NCBI GenBank assembly: GCA_026981635.1
Contig: JALSIF010000282.1
Location: 1 to 5,311, forward strand
Length of the DNA stretch: 5,311 nucleotides
Reading direction: 5' to 3'
Source: a bacterium
GTDB lineage: Bacteria; 4484-113; JALSIF01
The notes under the pieces are model-generated. The model was not told the DNA's origin and did no database searches. It saw nothing but the letters and a program-made list of their open reading frames with translations. Within the stretch, counting starts at the first letter, position 1. Every line of letters begins with the position of its first letter. Shown here piece after piece: positions 2 to 5,311 of this stretch. A program made the position numbers and the translations under genes.

Positions 2-106
2 GTAATCAGTAATGAAGGGCTAGTTGAAAGGGTGATAATTGGAGCGATGACTGAAGAAGAATTTAAGAGATATGTGCTTCCTCGGGGTCAGGGGCTGAAG
101 CGGTAG
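2..106 (+). CDS. C-terminal end of a thioredoxin-like (TlpA/redoxin-type) protein, partial
   Basis: An open frame enters from the left edge and runs for 34 codons to a TAG at 104-106. The visible end reads VISNEGLVERVIIGAMTEEE, then FKRYVLPRG and a short basic tail. A hydrophobic strand ending in Asn-Glu-Gly, a second strand with a Gly, and then a helix starting TEEEF resembles the last beta-hairpin and helix of thioredoxin-fold proteins, where a 'D-x-x-G-x-I-V-x-x-x-x-G' strand pair precedes a helix of the 'T-E-E-E-L' kind. The catalytic CxxC would lie outside the window, so the oxidoreductase role is inference. The gene converges on the response regulator and overlaps its 3' end by 19 bp. 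Its codons (gta, ata, aga, gaa) are more A/T-rich than those of the other genes here. The fragment is too short for certainty; it could be the end of another alpha/beta protein. Confidence 0.5.
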   Translation, partial: VISNEGLVERVIIGAMTEEEFKRYVLPRGQGLKR

Positions 107-786
107 CCAAATCCCCTCACCGTTTGGATGTGGTGGGGGTGGGAGGGGTCGCGCTCAATCTTTTCCCTGAGGGTCCGAAGGGTCACATCCACCGTCTTGG
201 TGTCGGTCTCGGTCCCCGGCCCCCAGACCAGGTCCACGATTCTCTGTCGGCTCAGCACCTGTTCGGGGTGGCTGGCCAGGGCGACCAGCAGGGCGAACTC
301 CTTGGGGCGCAGGTGCACCTCTTTTCCTTCCACAAAGACCCGGTGGGCGCGAAGGTCAATCTTTATCCGCCCCAGGTCCATCACCTGCTCGGTGAGCCGG
401 CTGGGGGCCCGGGCGTGGACCCGGCAGCGGTAGGCAAGCTCCTTCAGGCTGAAGGGCTTTACCACGTAGTCGGTGGCACCCAGCTCAAACCCCCGCAGGC
501 GGTCCTCCTCCTCGCCCAGGGCGGTGAGGATGATTACCGGGGTGGCAAGCTCCATCTCCTCGCGCATGGTGCGAAGCACCTCCAGGCCGCCCTTGCGGGG
601 AAGCATGAGATCCAGCACCACCAGGTCATAGGGGCCCTCCTCCTCAAGCAGTATGAGGGCGTCCCAGCCGTCCTCTGCGGTGTCAACCACGAAGCCCTCC
701 TGCTCCAGAGTCTCCCTCACCATGGCGAGGATGTCGGGGTCATCCTCCACCACCAGGATGTGCCTTCCCGATTTGTAACTTGTCAT
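88..786 (-). CDS. OmpR/PhoB-family two-component response regulator
   Basis: This is a cytoplasmic transcription regulator that is phosphorylated by a sensor kinase and then binds DNA as a dimer. Counting from the ATG at 786 it has 232 residues, the usual length for the family. The receiver domain (about 9-122) shows the acidic pair E14-D15-D16, the phosphoacceptor D59 in VVLDLMLP, the switch residue T88 and the conserved K110 in VVKPF. The winged-helix domain (about 137-231) shows LRPKEFALL, VLSRQRIVDLVWG, the recognition helix region TKTVDVTLRTLREKIE and the wing IQTVRGFGYRF. An ATG at 897 would add 37 residues with no receiver homology, so 786 is preferred. No clear Shine-Dalgarno sequence precedes it, so the transcript may have a weak or unusual start. 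No histidine kinase gene is adjacent: downstream is a convergent gene and upstream the divergent porin. The cognate kinase and the target genes cannot be read from the window. Confidence 0.95.
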   Translation of the reverse strand: MTSYKSGRHILVVEDDPDILAMVRETLEQEGFVVDTAEDGWDALILLEEEGPYDLVVLDLMLPRKGGLEVLRTMREEMELATPVIILTALGEEEDRLRGFELGATDYVVKPFSLKELAYRCRVHARAPSRLTEQVMDLGRIKIDLRAHRVFVEGKEVHLRPKEFALLVALASHPEQVLSRQRIVDLVWGPGTETDTKTVDVTLRTLREKIERDPSHPHHIQTVRGFGYRFSP

Positions 787-822
787 GGCTGGATCGATGG
801 TGTCCCCGGGAGCCGGTGATTG

Positions 823-852
823 AGCATAGCTCACCAGGAAAGTTGGTTTTAA
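823..852 (-). promoter_or_regulatory. Candidate promoter of the response regulator gene
   Basis: Read on the minus strand, TTAAAA (852-847) and TATGCT (828-823) are separated by 18 bp. Each matches the sigma-70-type consensus at 4 of 6 positions, and a start near 816 would leave about 30 nt before the ATG at 786. The -10 hexamer lies inside a 13-bp palindrome, TGAGC-ATA-GCTCA (821-833), which could be an operator. The matches are modest and the sigma factor of this host is unknown, so this is only a candidate. Confidence 0.3.
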
Positions 853-864
853 CTCACCTTTTAA
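847..864. repeat. A/T-rich direct repeat, possible response-regulator box
   Basis: On the minus strand TTAAAA occurs twice, at 864-859 and 852-847, with a 6-bp gap and so a 12-bp period. It stands out as an A/T-rich island in GC-rich DNA, and the second copy coincides with the candidate -35 of the regulator gene. OmpR/PhoB-type regulators usually bind tandem repeats spaced about 10-11 bp, so a regulator site is plausible, but 12 bp is slightly long and the repeat is short. Confidence 0.25.
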
Positions 865-918
865 AGTCGGAGGCCACAATGGACTGGCTCTCCCCAAAGG
901 TTACCCGGGAGGCAGGAA

Positions 919-1004: not shown

Positions 1005-2552
1005 ATGAAGGTATGGGTAGTTGGGACGCTTGTAGGAGTGGTTCTTCTTGGGCTTTTTCTTGCGCTGCCGACCTCGGCAGGGGTCAACGAACTACAGGAC
1101 CGTCAGCAGGTTCCCTCGTGGGCGGTGGAGGCGGTGGATGTACTCATGGAGGAGGGGCTCATCCACGGCTACCCCGACGGCACCTTCCGCCCCGACCGAC
1201 CCATCTCGCGGGCGGAGATGGCTCTGGTGGTGGCGGGGTTGCTCACCAAGCTTCGCCAGGAGAAGCTTGACCCCGGCACCCGGGCGCTGATCGGGGCACT
1301 TAGGGAAGAGTTTGCCGGTGAGCTGGAGAGCCTGCGCCAGGCCCTGGCCGAGCAGCGAAGCGCCATCTCCGAGGTGCGGGAGGCCGCCTACGAAGCCTCT
1401 GCCCAGGCGGAGGAGAACAGCAGGCTGATTGACCAGCTCAGCAAGGAGTTGGCCAGATTGGCCTGGTCAGGGGACTTCCGCTACCGGGTGGAGCTAAACG
1501 ACGAGCAGCTCAGGGACAGGGATGACCAGCGGCAGAGGATACGCTTGAGGATTGGAACTGGGATAGGCATAAACCCCAACACTCGGGTGAACTTCCGCTT
1601 CACCACAGGCAGGGAGGACCCCCTGTCGGGAAACCAGACCCTGGGCAACTTCAACGCCGGATTTGATTTCCGGCTGGACTACGCCAATCTGCACTGGACC
1701 AGAAACCTCGCTTCAGGTTCAAGGTTGGAAATCTATGCGGGGAGCTTTCCGTCGGGGGTGCTGCACAAAAACACCCAGATCGTCTTTGACAACGAAATGA
1801 CCTTCCAGGGGTTGATGGAAAAGCTAGTATTCCCCGCCGGCCGGGGGGAGTTGGGGCTCAGTTTAGTACAGAACCTGATCCGGGATGTGGGCGATACATT
1901 TGGCGAGGATGGCTGGCTCTATGGGGTGCAGCTGGCCAGTGATGACGTCTTGGCCGAAGGACTGGACCTGTTTGCCGGCTACTACACCCTCACCAAGCCT
2001 GAGCTTATGGAGGGGATCAAGGACGAGTTTTTCCGCTTAGTGGATTTCAACGGTGATGGCTCGGTCACCAGGAAGGACCTGCTGCCGGGGGAGGTCCCCG
2101 GGCTTGGGGACTACACCATCCTCAGCCTGGGAGCAAGCTACACCTTTGGTGACCCAGAGCGGCCGGTAAAGATCTATGGCGACTATGTAAGAAACCTTGA
2201 CGCCAGCTTCCCCGCCGAGGGAGCTACCGGGGCGGCCGCCTTCCTGGAGGACCAGGACGAGTGGGGCTTTGACCTGGGGGTGAAGGTGGGCCGGCTGAAG
2301 AAGCCTGGCGACTGGCAGGCACTGGCCGAGTGGCGCCGGATTGGGGCCTTTGCCACCTTCCCCTGGCTGGGAGACAGCGACTTTAAGGCCACCAACATCC
2401 ACGGCCTGAAGCTCTCCCTGGGCTACCAGTACAGCCCGAACGTCGTCTTCAAATACAGCGGGTTCCTAGGCCAGGTGGACAACCGCTTCGGGGTGCTTGA
2501 GGAGGCGGTCAGACGCAACCGGCACCAGTTTGACGTGATCTTCAAGTTTTAG
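1005..2552 (+). CDS. SLH-domain outer-membrane porin (OmpM/SlpA-like architecture)
   Basis: This 515-aa protein is predicted to form a channel in the outer membrane and tie that membrane to the cell wall. A signal peptide spans about 1-25 (basic MK, hydrophobic core, cleavage after PTSA). One SLH domain (about 34-80) contains WAVEAVDVLMEEGLIHGYPDGTF quoted here only in part: W39, the GLIHGYPDG turn and the ISRAEMA helix start at I67. In known SLH porins this domain binds cell-wall polymers. A coiled coil follows (about 84-153), rich in Glu, Gln and Ala with spaced Leu. From about 156 to the C-terminal Phe are alternating amphipathic strands; TTGREDPLSGNQTLG (201-214) strongly recalls the putative porin family Porin_5. 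Residues 347-358 form a canonical EF-hand loop inside the barrel, which is unusual. The gene has its own terminator and appears monocistronic. The domain order is clear; substrate and pore properties cannot be read. Confidence 0.88.
   Translation: MKVWVVGTLVGVVLLGLFLALPTSAGVNELQDRQQVPSWAVEAVDVLMEEGLIHGYPDGTFRPDRPISRAEMALVVAGLLTKLRQEKLDPGTRALIGALREEFAGELESLRQALAEQRSAISEVREAAYEASAQAEENSRLIDQLSKELARLAWSGDFRYRVELNDEQLRDRDDQRQRIRLRIGTGIGINPNTRVNFRFTTGREDPLSGNQTLGNFNAGFDFRLDYANLHWTRNLASGSRLEIYAGSFPSGVLHKNTQIVFDNEMTFQGLMEKLVFPAGRGELGLSLVQNLIRDVGDTFGEDGWLYGVQLASDDVLAEGLDLFAGYYTLTKPELMEGIKDEFFRLVDFNGDGSVTRKDLLPGEVPGLGDYTILSLGASYTFGDPERPVKIYGDYVRNLDASFPAEGATGAAAFLEDQDEWGFDLGVKVGRLKKPGDWQALAEWRRIGAFATFPWLGDSDFKATNIHGLKLSLGYQYSPNVVFKYSGFLGQVDNRFGVLEEAVRRNRHQFDVIFKF
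2043..2078 (+). other. EF-hand-like calcium-binding loop coded within the porin
   Basis: Residues 347-358 of the porin read DFNGDGSVTRKD. The ligand positions 1, 3, 5, 7, 9 and 12 are D347, N349, D351, S353, T355 and D358, with Gly at 6 and a hydrophobic Val at 8, as in EF-hand and dockerin-type loops. The preceding residues 333-346 (including KDEFFRLV) could be the entering helix. The segment sits between two probable barrel strands (near 320-330 and 370-383), so it would be a loop of the barrel. Calcium binding is inferred from the motif. Confidence 0.65.
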
Positions 2553-2760: not shown

Positions 2761-3192
2761 TTACCGGGGTCGCCTGCGCTTCTCCCGGTAGTCCTCGTAC
2801 TCCCTGGCCAGCCATTCCAGGTTGGAAAGATAGAGGGGGTCGCAGCTCTCCCTGAGCTTCTCCGCCAAGGGGGCGACCGCCTTCCACAGGCGGTAGAACT
2901 CGCTGGTTGACTCAAACAGCACCTCGGGGTGGAGGCAGCCGGTCTTAACCAGCGCACCCACCATGTTCCAGAAGCCCAGCACCTGGCGGAACCAGGCGTC
3001 CTGGCGGCTGCCCGGGGGGATCTCCCGACGATACCACTCCACCCCACTCTCCTCCTCACCCAGCTCGGCTAGCTTTCTTGCGATCACCTGGTCTACGAAC
3101 TCGCGCGCCTCCCGCATGTGGGGAGTCTGGCTCAGGTGGTAGAGCTCTAGGAGGACGAGGGCGTCCTGGTGGGTGGGAACCGGATCTGCCAT
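2761..3192 (-). CDS. Small uncharacterised helical protein (DUF4760-like)
   Basis: This encodes 143 residues with no signal peptide or membrane segment, so it is probably cytoplasmic. It looks all-helical, with repeated Leu/Glu/Arg-rich stretches. Tyr and Trp are frequent, and notable segments are LELYHLSQTPHMREAREFV (about 16-34), then FRQVLGFWNMVGALVKTGCL and HPEVLF in the middle, and LSNLEWLAREYE near a basic end (KRRRPR). The pattern of an early 'MREAREFV' helix and a central 'FWNMVGALVKxGxLHPE' recalls small bacterial proteins annotated as DUF4760; that assignment is from memory and unverified. The function is unknown. The ATG at 3192 is preceded by GGAG (3204-3201) at 8 nt. The gene is divergent from the lipoprotein gene, with 83 bp and a perfect palindrome between them, so the two may share a regulator. 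I see no convincing terminator after its stop. Confidence 0.8.
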   Translation of the reverse strand: MADPVPTHQDALVLLELYHLSQTPHMREAREFVDQVIARKLAELGEEESGVEWYRREIPPGSRQDAWFRQVLGFWNMVGALVKTGCLHPEVLFESTSEFYRLWKAVAPLAEKLRESCDPLYLSNLEWLAREYEDYREKRRRPR

Positions 3193-3275: not shown

Positions 3276-4754
3276 ATGGACGGCAGGCGAAGCACCTGGG
3301 CAAAGGGGCTCTCTCTCCCCCTCATCGGGGTGGCGGCGGCCCTGCTCCTCTCCTGCGGCGGCGGGGGTGGAGGCGGGCCGGCAACCCTTGCCGCCACCTT
3401 TGACCTCGCCATCCGGGGAAGCGGAAGCCTCAGGGGGAGCGCCGAGCTCAGGCTCTTTTCCGATGGCAAGGTGGAGGGGGAGGGGAGCCTAAGCGACGGG
3501 ATAAGCCAGCTTGGCCTTACCTTCAGGGGAGAGAAGCGGGGCGAGGGGCTTAGCGGCACCCTGAGCCTCTCCAGCGGGGCGGAGGGGGAGTTTGCCCTGG
3601 ACCTCTTGAGCGAGCAGGTGCTCTCGGGCTGGTTTCGGGTGGGGGGCGGTCAGGCCCTCACCCTGGGGGCGATGGCCGGCCTTATGAGGCCGGAGCATAC
3701 CACCGCCCAGCAGGGGGAGGTTCAGTTTCCCCTCCGCCTGGTCCACTTTGAGGAGCGCTTTGGGGATAGCCAGCTGGCGGTGGGAATAGGCGAGCTTTCC
3801 AGCTCGGGGGTCTATGAGGTTAGGCTGGTGGTGGCCGACTTTGCCACTCCGGAGCCCGACCTTTCCCTCTACATCCTCAACGGCACCCTGGTGGGAGACC
3901 GCCTAAGCGGGCGGGTCTTCCCCTTTGGGGAGGTCTCCGAGGTGGGCCGCTTCATCGGGATGAGGGGGGAGCAGGGCGACTTCTACGGCCAGACGGTCTT
4001 TGCCGGCGGCCTGGGGGAGGGTTTCTTCGCCATCCCCCTCTCCGACCTTACCCCCCAGTTTCCCGACACCTCGCCGGGTAGCGTGGTGAGGGCGCTGGAT
4101 TCGAGCCTCACCCTCTCAGGCTCCACCGGCGATCTTTCGGGCCAGATGCGGATCTACCTTCGGGCCGACGGGTCGGTCACCGGTGCCGGCTCGGCCCTGG
4201 ACCAGAGTGAGAACCTTCTCTTCCTCACCCTTACCGGCAACACCCAGGGGGAGGGGTTTGCCGGTCCCCTCACGGTGGGAGAGCGGAGCCTCTCCCTCAG
4301 CGCCACACCCCTGGGCGTGGGCTTTGGCCTCAGCGTCCAGGAGCTGGATGTGGAGCTGGTGGGGCTGGCGGTCAGCGCCATCCCCAAGGAGCTGAGGGGT
4401 GAGTTTCACCGCTTCCACCTCCACCTTTCCGGCGAGCGGCGGGGGGCGGGCCTTCTGGACATGCAGTTTACCGAGACCCTTCCCCGTCCCCTGAGCGGCT
4501 ATGCCCTGGTGAGGGACAGTGTGGGGGCAGAGAAGCTGTTTGAGCTTCGCGGCGAGGCAGACTTCTCCGGCAGTGGTCCCGACAGCTCGGGGGTCTACTC
4601 AGGGGACCTATTTACCGCCACCCAGCCGCCCCAGCGGGTGGGGGGGTTCTTTGCCAACCAACAGGGGATACCCACCCGGGCGCCCATTGGGGGGCAGTTT
4701 GCCGAGGAGGGGGAGAGCTCGCTGATCCTCAGCGGCCTTCCCCTCTCCGACTAG
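3276..4754 (+). CDS. Duplicated, beta-rich surface lipoprotein of unknown function
   Basis: The frame is open upstream of 3276, but the GGGAGGTGG ribosome binding site and the signal sequence fix the ATG at 3276, giving 492 aa. Residues 1-26 form a lipoprotein signal (RR, hydrophobic core, LLSC lipobox) with C27 as the lipidation site, followed by a seven-Gly linker (28-34). The rest is Gly/Ser-rich alternating beta strand. It has an internal duplication: residues about 42-98 (LRG, SDG, GEG, LSG landmarks at 52-54, 62-64, 89-91, 93-94) match 277-334 (LSG, ADG, GEG, FAG at 287-289, 297-299, 325-327, 328-330) at an offset of 235-236. Each half ends in a similar motif, DFYGQTVF...GEGFFA (235-252) and VYSGDLF...VGGFFA (440-460). 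Two lobes ending in a barrel-type 'G-G-x-F' motif faintly recall TbpB-like receptors, but this is only a shape analogy. It is divergent from 2761-3192 and overlaps the next gene tail to tail by 26 bp. Confidence 0.85.
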   Translation: MDGRRSTWAKGLSLPLIGVAAALLLSCGGGGGGGPATLAATFDLAIRGSGSLRGSAELRLFSDGKVEGEGSLSDGISQLGLTFRGEKRGEGLSGTLSLSSGAEGEFALDLLSEQVLSGWFRVGGGQALTLGAMAGLMRPEHTTAQQGEVQFPLRLVHFEERFGDSQLAVGIGELSSSGVYEVRLVVADFATPEPDLSLYILNGTLVGDRLSGRVFPFGEVSEVGRFIGMRGEQGDFYGQTVFAGGLGEGFFAIPLSDLTPQFPDTSPGSVVRALDSSLTLSGSTGDLSGQMRIYLRADGSVTGAGSALDQSENLLFLTLTGNTQGEGFAGPLTVGERSLSLSATPLGVGFGLSVQELDVELVGLAVSAIPKELRGEFHRFHLHLSGERRGAGLLDMQFTETLPRPLSGYALVRDSVGAEKLFELRGEADFSGSGPDSSGVYSGDLFTATQPPQRVGGFFANQQGIPTRAPIGGQFAEEGESSLILSGLPLSD

Positions 4755-5311
4755 GGCGGGGGCGGTAGATGGAGACCCCGCCGAGGTCGGAGGCGATCCA
4801 CAGCCGCCCCTCACGGTCCAGGGAGATGCCCTCCTGGGCGTAGCCGGGCAGGACCTGCCAGTCAACCACCCGCAGGGTCTTGGGGTCCACCAGGCTGACC
4901 AGGTTCTGCCAGGCGTGGCTCACCCAGATGAGCTGGCTGGCCGGGTCGTAGAAGAGGCCACCCAGGTTAAGCCCAGGCATGGGCAGGGTGGCGTGGACGG
5001 TGAGGGTGCTTCCCTCCGCGGGCAGGGTGGTCTTGATGAGCAGGGGAGGGTCGTCCTGGTTGGCCAGCCAGAGGTAGCCGCCGCCGGGGGCGTCGGGGTC
5101 GGGCTGGAAGGTGATCCCCTCAAGGCCGTTTCCCCCCGGCTCAACCAGGGGCTCTCCCCGGAACCGCTCGGGCAGGCGGTACTCGGCGACCGGCTTCAGG
5201 TCGGCGGCGGAAAGCTCCAGCACCAGATCCTTCCGCTCGTTTACTACGAAGTAGCTCTTCCGCTTGGGGTGGTAGGTGATCCCCTCCAGGTCACCGTCAA
5301 TCTGGCTTGAG
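4729..5311 (-). CDS. SdiA-regulated/YjiK-like beta-propeller protein, C-terminal part
   Basis: The frame is open through the right edge, so the 193 visible residues are the C-terminal part; a GTG at 5223 is an internal codon, since recognisable blade sequence continues upstream of it. Four blade-like repeats are visible: DLEGITYHPKRKSYFVVNE (about 7-25), GLEGITFQP...YLWLANQ (about 62-85), LGGLFYDPASQLIWVSHAW and AQEGISLDREGRLWIASDL, then GVSIYRP near the end. The recurrent '(E)G-I/L-x-(Y/F/L)-D/H/Q-P' strand followed by a hydrophobic 'L-W-V/I' strand is typical of SdiA-regulated (YjiK) propellers. An esterase-like phytase-family propeller is an alternative. Such proteins are usually exported or periplasmic, but the N-terminus is outside the window. 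The molecular function of the family is poorly known. It ends in TGA at 4729-4731, inside the 3' end of the lipoprotein gene. Confidence 0.75.
   Translation of the reverse strand, partial: SSQIDGDLEGITYHPKRKSYFVVNERKDLVLELSAADLKPVAEYRLPERFRGEPLVEPGGNGLEGITFQPDPDAPGGGYLWLANQDDPPLLIKTTLPAEGSTLTVHATLPMPGLNLGGLFYDPASQLIWVSHAWQNLVSLVDPKTLRVVDWQVLPGYAQEGISLDREGRLWIASDLGGVSIYRPRPSRRGEGR

What the first reader, a model, noticed from the sequence alone, without database searches (positions are those of the whole stretch)
2004..2078. EF-hand-like calcium site inside an outer-membrane porin barrel
Seen: residues 347-358 of the SLH porin fit all six EF-hand ligand positions (D, N, D, S, T, D), with Gly at 6 and Val at 8, and a plausible entering helix at 333-346. 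Established: EF-hand and dockerin loops bind calcium, and SLH porins are known as tethers and channels. Inference: a full EF-hand in a barrel loop could let calcium gate the pore, rigidify the loop, or help anchor an S-layer. I do not know of this in characterised SLH porins.
Basis: partly seen in the sequence, partly recalled or inferred. Interest (0 to 1): 0.6.

Follow-up and report, generated by a model that had tools for sequence, protein, structure and literature searches.

The report
Conserved calcium loop in tethered porin
A pore protein that staples the outer membrane to the cell wall in a little-known bacterial phylum carries a short calcium-binding-type loop on its predicted outer face; the loop is kept almost unchanged across distant relatives and probably stiffens that part of the protein, rather than being a full EF-hand or a gate.

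Summary
Residues 347-358 of the 515-aa SLH porin read DFNGDGSVTRKD, all six EF-loop ligand positions, at the stated coordinates.

It is more than chance. In 11 SLH porins from 7 genomes of the same class (27-30% identical to the query), D1, N3, G6 and the closing D are invariant. Position 5 is D or N, and the non-ligand positions drift.

The "EF-hand" label does not hold. The proposed entering helix is not conserved, there is no sign of an exiting helix, the loop is single, and every Pfam EF-hand score is below cut-off. It is better described as a Dx[DN]xDG calcium loop.

By strand counting it lies in extracellular loop 5 of a 16-strand barrel. That is not one of the constriction loops (3 and 7) known in OmpM, so gating is weakly supported. 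Loop 5 is about 12 residues longer here than in 42 relatives that lack the motif. On a tree built without the loop, motif-bearing proteins form one supported clade (100/97).

Best reading: a clade-specific structural Ca2+ site rigidifying a surface loop of a membrane-tethering porin. Metal-stabilised loops are already known in SlpA and MOMP, so this is a new variant of a known kind. Calcium binding and the loop's fold remain unproven; no reliable model could be made.

The parts
1005..2552 (+). SLH-tethered 16-strand outer-membrane porin, 515 aa (signal peptide, SLH domain, coiled-coil stalk, Porin_5 barrel)
   Evidence: ORF; Pfam Porin_5 76.8 bits (cut-off 22) and SLH 49.2 bits (cut-off 20.8); OmpM (8bys, 8bym) is the nearest solved relative of the profile.
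1101..1223 (+). SLH domain (residues 33-73), cell-wall anchor
   Evidence: Pfam PF00395, E 5.3e-13.
1272..1466 (+). predicted helical stalk / coiled coil (about residues 90-154)
   Evidence: Helices 90-102 and 104-154 in the single-sequence model, about pLDDT 58-80; same order of parts as OmpM and SlpA.
1467..2549 (+). beta-barrel, about 16 strands (residues 155-515)
   Evidence: Porin_5 match; amphipathic-strand profile and manual strand count; alignment of both ends to the OmpM barrel. Inference, not a model.
1995..2108 (+). predicted extracellular loop 5 (about residues 331-368) between strands 9 and 10
   Evidence: Manual strand assignment: inter-strand gaps alternate long and short, and this is one of the long ones. 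Loop 5 median 41 residues in motif-bearing proteins against 28.5-29.5 in the rest.
2043..2078 (+). Dx[DN]xDG-type calcium loop DFNGDGSVTRKD (residues 347-358)
   Evidence: Sequence; D347, N349, G352, D358 invariant in 11 same-class SLH porins; absent at this place in 42 other Porin_5 proteins.
   Evidence: Variable, gapped and Gly/Asn-rich in relatives. Single-sequence models draw a helix here, but at low confidence.

Best explanation
Residues 347-358 form a single Dx[DN]xDG calcium-binding loop inserted into extracellular loop 5 of an OmpM-like, SLH-tethered Porin_5 barrel. Asp1, Asn3, Asp/Asn5, the carbonyl of residue 7, residue 9 (directly or through water) and the closing Asp would bind one Ca2+ from outside the cell, holding a long surface loop in a fixed shape just before strand 10. 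The job is structural: fold and rigidify loop 5, and perhaps pack it against neighbouring loops or subunits. It is not a sensor or a pore gate. Shown here: the motif, its conservation, its restriction to one clade, and the lack of conserved EF helices. Inferred: calcium binding, the extracellular side, and the structural role.
For: D1, N3, G6 and the closing D are invariant in 11 SLH porins from 7 genomes in 3 families of the class, at 27-30% identity to the query. Most non-ligand positions inside the 12-mer vary freely (position 7 S/V/A/T/L/Q, position 8 V/I/A/R, position 11 almost anything), and the two differences between the orthologues L026 and L041 fall at positions 7 and 11, neither a side-chain ligand. 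Two paralogues of one genome (L024, L004) have N at 5 and the closing Asp one residue later; Rigden et al. report that the spacing to the later acidic ligand varies widely among proven Dx[DN]xDG calcium loops (PMC3123361). Loop 5 is about 12 residues longer in the motif clade, and the clade is one side of a branch with 100/97 support on a tree built without the loop. Metal-stabilised, clade-specific loop insertions exist in the SLH porin SlpA (PMC9388160). Ca2+ cross-links loops L3, L4 and L6 and steadies the MOMP porin (PMC5090048). OmpM is constricted by loops 3 and 7, not 5 (PMC10628300).
Against: No metal-binding data and no confident structure (mean pLDDT 41.6 and 40.3). The strand count and loop number come from sequence periodicity and alignment. 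Asp/Asn/Gly-rich turns are common in surface loops, and position 8 is Arg in two members, unusual for an EF-type loop. Two members have N at 5 and a shifted closing Asp.
Confidence: 0.66

Rival explanations
1. The loop is a Ca2+-dependent attachment point: it helps bind an S-layer, a surface glycan or a partner protein, possibly related to the dockerin-cohesin systems of this class.
For: Every genome of the class, the window's own included, has dockerin-type domains over cut-off, and 9 of 10 have cohesin-like domains over cut-off. The porin loop resembles one dockerin repeat (D.NGDG.[IV]...D). The site is predicted to face outward.
Against: Only one repeat, without the helix that follows each dockerin repeat (L125, L126, L127); Dockerin_1 reaches only E 0.047 on the isolated fragment and E<1 in 2 of 11 members. 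No cohesin was found in the window's own (85% complete) genome. Flanking genes differ from genome to genome, so no partner is suggested.
Confidence: 0.13
2. Calcium at the loop tunes the pore: gating or ion selectivity, as in MOMP.
For: In MOMP of Campylobacter jejuni, Ca2+ tied to L3, L4 and L6 changes selectivity and steadies conductance (PMC5090048).
Against: The motif is in loop 5; in OmpM the eyelet is formed by loops 3 and 7. No evidence that loop 5 folds into the lumen.
Confidence: 0.08
3. The motif is an Asp/Asn/Gly turn conserved for backbone or packing reasons and binds no metal in the cell.
For: Departures from the ideal loop: N5 and shifted closing Asp in L004 and L024, Arg at position 8 in L026 and L041. 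No metal data.
Against: The invariant columns fall exactly on the Dx[DN]xDG positions plus a closing Asp while the residues between them drift.
Confidence: 0.1
4. A true EF-hand (helix-loop-helix).
For: The 12-residue loop fits, and low-confidence single-sequence models draw a helix at 332-345.
Against: The helix region is not conserved and is Gly/Asn-rich in relatives; the sequence after D358 leads into strand 10; Pfam EF-hand models are below cut-off, and at best 2 of 11 members reach E<1 with any one of them.
Confidence: 0.03

Closest known systems
OmpM of Veillonella parvula (8bym, 8bys; PMC10628300)
   Same: SLH domain, helical stalk, 16-strand porin barrel; best solved match to the profile of this family, SLH and both ends of the barrel.
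   Different: Very low identity in the barrel; the middle of the barrel, strands 7-11 with loop 5, does not align. Calcium appears once in the paper, in the simulation setup only.
SlpA of Deinococcus radiodurans (7zgx; PMC9388160)
   Same: SLH-coiled coil-barrel tether; clade-specific loop insertions stabilised by bound metal ions.
   Different: Much larger barrel; metal held by residues spread through the insertion (D274, D276, D310), in insertions within the pore, with the metal not identified.
MOMP porin of Campylobacter jejuni (PMC5090048)
   Same: A porin with Ca2+ bound by its loops, with structural and selectivity effects.
   Different: 18 strands, ligands drawn from L3, L4 and L6 at the constriction, no linear Dx[DN]xDG motif described.
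Dx[DN]xDG calcium loops (PMC3123361)
   Same: Linear motif, hydrophilic spacers, Gly at 6, later acidic ligand at variable spacing.
   Different: None of the 16 structural contexts counted in 2011 is described in the main text as an outer-membrane barrel: the words 'outer membrane', 'porin' and 'barrel' do not occur. Its supplementary table could not be read.
Type I dockerin (PF00404)
   Same: Nearly the same 12-residue loop consensus, and abundant in this class.
   Different: Dockerins have two repeats, each followed by a helix; the porin has one loop and no conserved helix.

Membership tests
EF-hand (PF00036 and related) | 12-residue loop with ligands at 1, 3, 5, 7, 9, 12 | tested here: met
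   DFNGDGSVTRKD; positions 1, 3, 6 and the closing D invariant in 11 relatives. Two relatives have the closing D at 13.
EF-hand (PF00036 and related) | entering and exiting helices | tested here: not met
   By sequence only: no conserved helix before; the sequence after leads into strand 10. No reliable model.
EF-hand (PF00036 and related) | score above the curated cut-off | tested here: not met
   Whole protein: EF-hand_1 16.0 bits against 25.4, the others below as well; at most 2 of 11 members reach E<1 with any one model.
EF-hand (PF00036 and related) | usually paired hands | tested here: not met
   A single loop in the window's protein.
Dx[DN]xDG calcium loop | Dx[DN]xDG core | tested here: met
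   9 of 11 strict, 2 of 11 DxNxNG.
Dx[DN]xDG calcium loop | further acidic ligand after the motif | tested here: met
   Closing Asp invariant, 5 residues after the core (6 in L004 and L024).
Dx[DN]xDG calcium loop | Ca2+ bound in an EF-like geometry | not testable with these tools
   No metal data; models too poor.
Type I dockerin | two loop-helix repeats | tested here: not met
   One loop, no conserved helix; true dockerins of the class have two repeats.
SLH porin (OmpM/SlpA type) with Porin_5 barrel | SLH domain | tested here: met
   49.2 bits against 20.8; found in 11 of 11.
SLH porin (OmpM/SlpA type) with Porin_5 barrel | porin barrel | tested here: met
   Porin_5 76.8 bits against 22; found in 11 of 11.
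SLH porin (OmpM/SlpA type) with Porin_5 barrel | trimer, cell-wall tethering, pore activity | not testable with these tools
   Needs the protein.

The most novel reading that the evidence does not exclude
In a dockerin-rich phylum, the membrane-tethering porin has acquired a surface calcium loop that works as a Ca2+-dependent docking site for extracellular proteins or an S-layer, linking cell wall, outer membrane and surface coat.
Probability: 0.1. Interest if true: 0.65.

Novelty: new variant of a known kind. Interest (0 to 1): 0.36.

Why it matters
SLH porins are thought to be an ancient way of holding the outer membrane to the cell wall. [quoted passage not shown] It gives a simple, testable prediction (Ca2+ stabilises the barrel; D347, D351 and D358 matter) in a lineage where, as far as I found, no such protein has been studied.

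Tried and rejected
Structure: single-sequence AlphaFold2 of the whole protein (pLDDT 41.6) and of a 92-residue fragment around loop 5 (pLDDT 40.3); both useless for the barrel. Rejected: full EF-hand (helices not conserved); dockerin (one repeat, no helix); chance motif (ligand columns invariant); general Porin_5 feature (absent from 42 relatives outside the clade, including same-class Porin_5 without SLH, L009 and L011, and SLH-Porin_5 of a sister-like phylum, L083-L086). Gene neighbourhood: flanking genes differ (ABC transporters, tyrosyl-tRNA synthetase, M50B peptidase, AIM24) and give no functional clue. Literature: no paper in the open library holds porin, EF-hand, outer membrane and SLH together; the library lacks most subscription papers, so this is weak evidence of novelty.

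Full report
Observation. The ORF at 1005-2552 (+) encodes 515 aa with an SLH domain (residues 33-73) and a Porin_5 barrel, both far above Pfam cut-off. Residues 347-358, window 2043-2078, read DFNGDGSVTRKD. In shuffles of the same protein a 12-residue EF-loop pattern turns up in 0.155%, so the sequence alone is suggestive but not conclusive.

Relatives. The window lies in a 1.75-Mb, 85%-complete genome of a small class; only ten genomes are held for its class and for its phylum. Eleven SLH porins from seven of them (families f1, f2 and f3) are 27-30% identical to the query. In alignment A2, D347, N349, G352 and D358 are invariant, and no other column between Y327 and G376 is. Position 5 is D in nine and N in two. 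Positions 4, 7, 8, 10 and 11 vary. Two paralogues of one genome (L004, L024) have DxNxNG and the closing Asp one residue later. The paralogues mean that the eleven rows are not eleven independent lineages; the three families are the better count.

Where it is absent. Porin_5 proteins without SLH from many other lineages, including two of the same class (L009, L011), and SLH-Porin_5 proteins of a second small phylum (L083-L086, also L133) lack the motif at this place. On a maximum-likelihood tree of 53 barrels built with this loop cut out, the 11 motif-bearing proteins are one side of a branch supported 100/97, and the SLH-only proteins are another. Loop 5 is a median of 41 residues in the motif clade and 28.5-29.5 in the others, a difference of about one calcium loop. 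The simplest history is one gain (or insertion) in the ancestor of this clade, followed by strong conservation.

Topology. I counted strands by eye from the alignment, helped by an amphipathicity profile. The gaps between strands alternate long (about 9-36 residues) and short (about 3-8). With both ends in the periplasm, as in OmpM-type barrels, the motif falls in extracellular loop 5, between strands 9 and 10. The profile of the family matches OmpM (8bys, 8bym) in the SLH part and at both ends of the barrel, but loop 5 itself does not align. This is inference: single-sequence AlphaFold2 gave no usable barrel.

EF-hand or not. An EF-hand is a helix-loop-helix, normally paired. Here the stretch before the loop is variable and Gly/Asn-rich in relatives, the stretch after it appears to lead into strand 10, and the loop is single. 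Pfam EF-hand models stay below cut-off for the window's protein, and at most 2 of 11 members reach E<1 with any one of them. The better description is the Dx[DN]xDG linear calcium motif of Rigden and colleagues, which occurs outside EF-hands in many folds, with a later acidic ligand at variable spacing (PMC3123361).

How it probably works. Outside the cell Ca2+ is usually plentiful, and Rigden and colleagues remark that this eases the fixing of new Dx[DN]xDG sites. The most likely role is to fix the shape of a long surface loop. Precedents: SlpA of Deinococcus, also an SLH-stalk-barrel protein, has clade-specific insertions stabilised by metal ions (PMC9388160); in the MOMP porin Ca2+ cross-links three loops and steadies the channel (PMC5090048). 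Gating is less likely, because OmpM is constricted by loops 3 and 7 (PMC10628300). Shown here: motif, conservation, clade restriction, absence of conserved EF helices. Inferred: Ca2+ binding, surface exposure, structural role.

Dockerin rival. An unexpected finding is that every genome of the class has dockerin domains over cut-off (3 to 30 matches at E<=0.001 each) and nine of ten have cohesin-like domains. Dockerin repeats share the DxNGDGxVDxxD loop, so the porin loop could have come from, or imitate, a half dockerin. But dockerins have two repeats, each with a following helix, and none of that is conserved here. I therefore do not file it as a dockerin, and keep Ca2+-dependent docking as the most novel reading (probability 0.1).

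Verdict. Novelty is a new variant of a known kind. The main gap is a structure and a metal-binding measurement.

Noticed in passing
L008, L007, L035 (strand 4-strand 5 turn of the porin homologues, genomes G007 and G008): A cysteine-rich insertion (for example CPEKDCCDKCSSCNGNSCGGSCGQC...) in what the strand count makes a periplasmic turn; these porins have 15-17 Cys in all. Possibly disulfide-bonded or metal-binding.
   Followed up: no
All ten genomes of the class; own genome G000 contigs C251, C301, C219, C124, C99: Rich in dockerin domains (3-30 matches per genome at E<=0.001), with cohesin-like domains in 9 of 10. Paired dockerin repeats sit at the C-terminus of several frames; some of these (L125, L127) look like subtilisin-type proteases, judged by eye only.
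   Followed up: partly
window 1764-1811 (loop 3 of the porin) and relatives: Loop 3 of Porin_5 proteins carries a widely shared WDxDxNPEG-like signature (24 of 53 fit [DN]x[DN]x[DEN]G), which the window's porin has lost (FDNEMTFQG). It might be a further metal or structural site near the pore constriction.
   Followed up: partly
window 88-897 (-): OmpR/PhoB-type response regulator transcribed divergently from the porin; no histidine kinase is seen in the window.
   Followed up: no
window 2761-3192 (-): DUF4760 protein (65 bits against 25) of unknown function downstream of the porin.
   Followed up: no
window 3276-4754 (+): Probable lipoprotein of about 490 aa (LLSCGGGGGGG after the signal) with no Pfam match.
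   Followed up: no
window 4729-5310 (-): Phytase-like esterase / SdiA-regulated beta-propeller-type protein, cut by the end of the contig.
   Followed up: no
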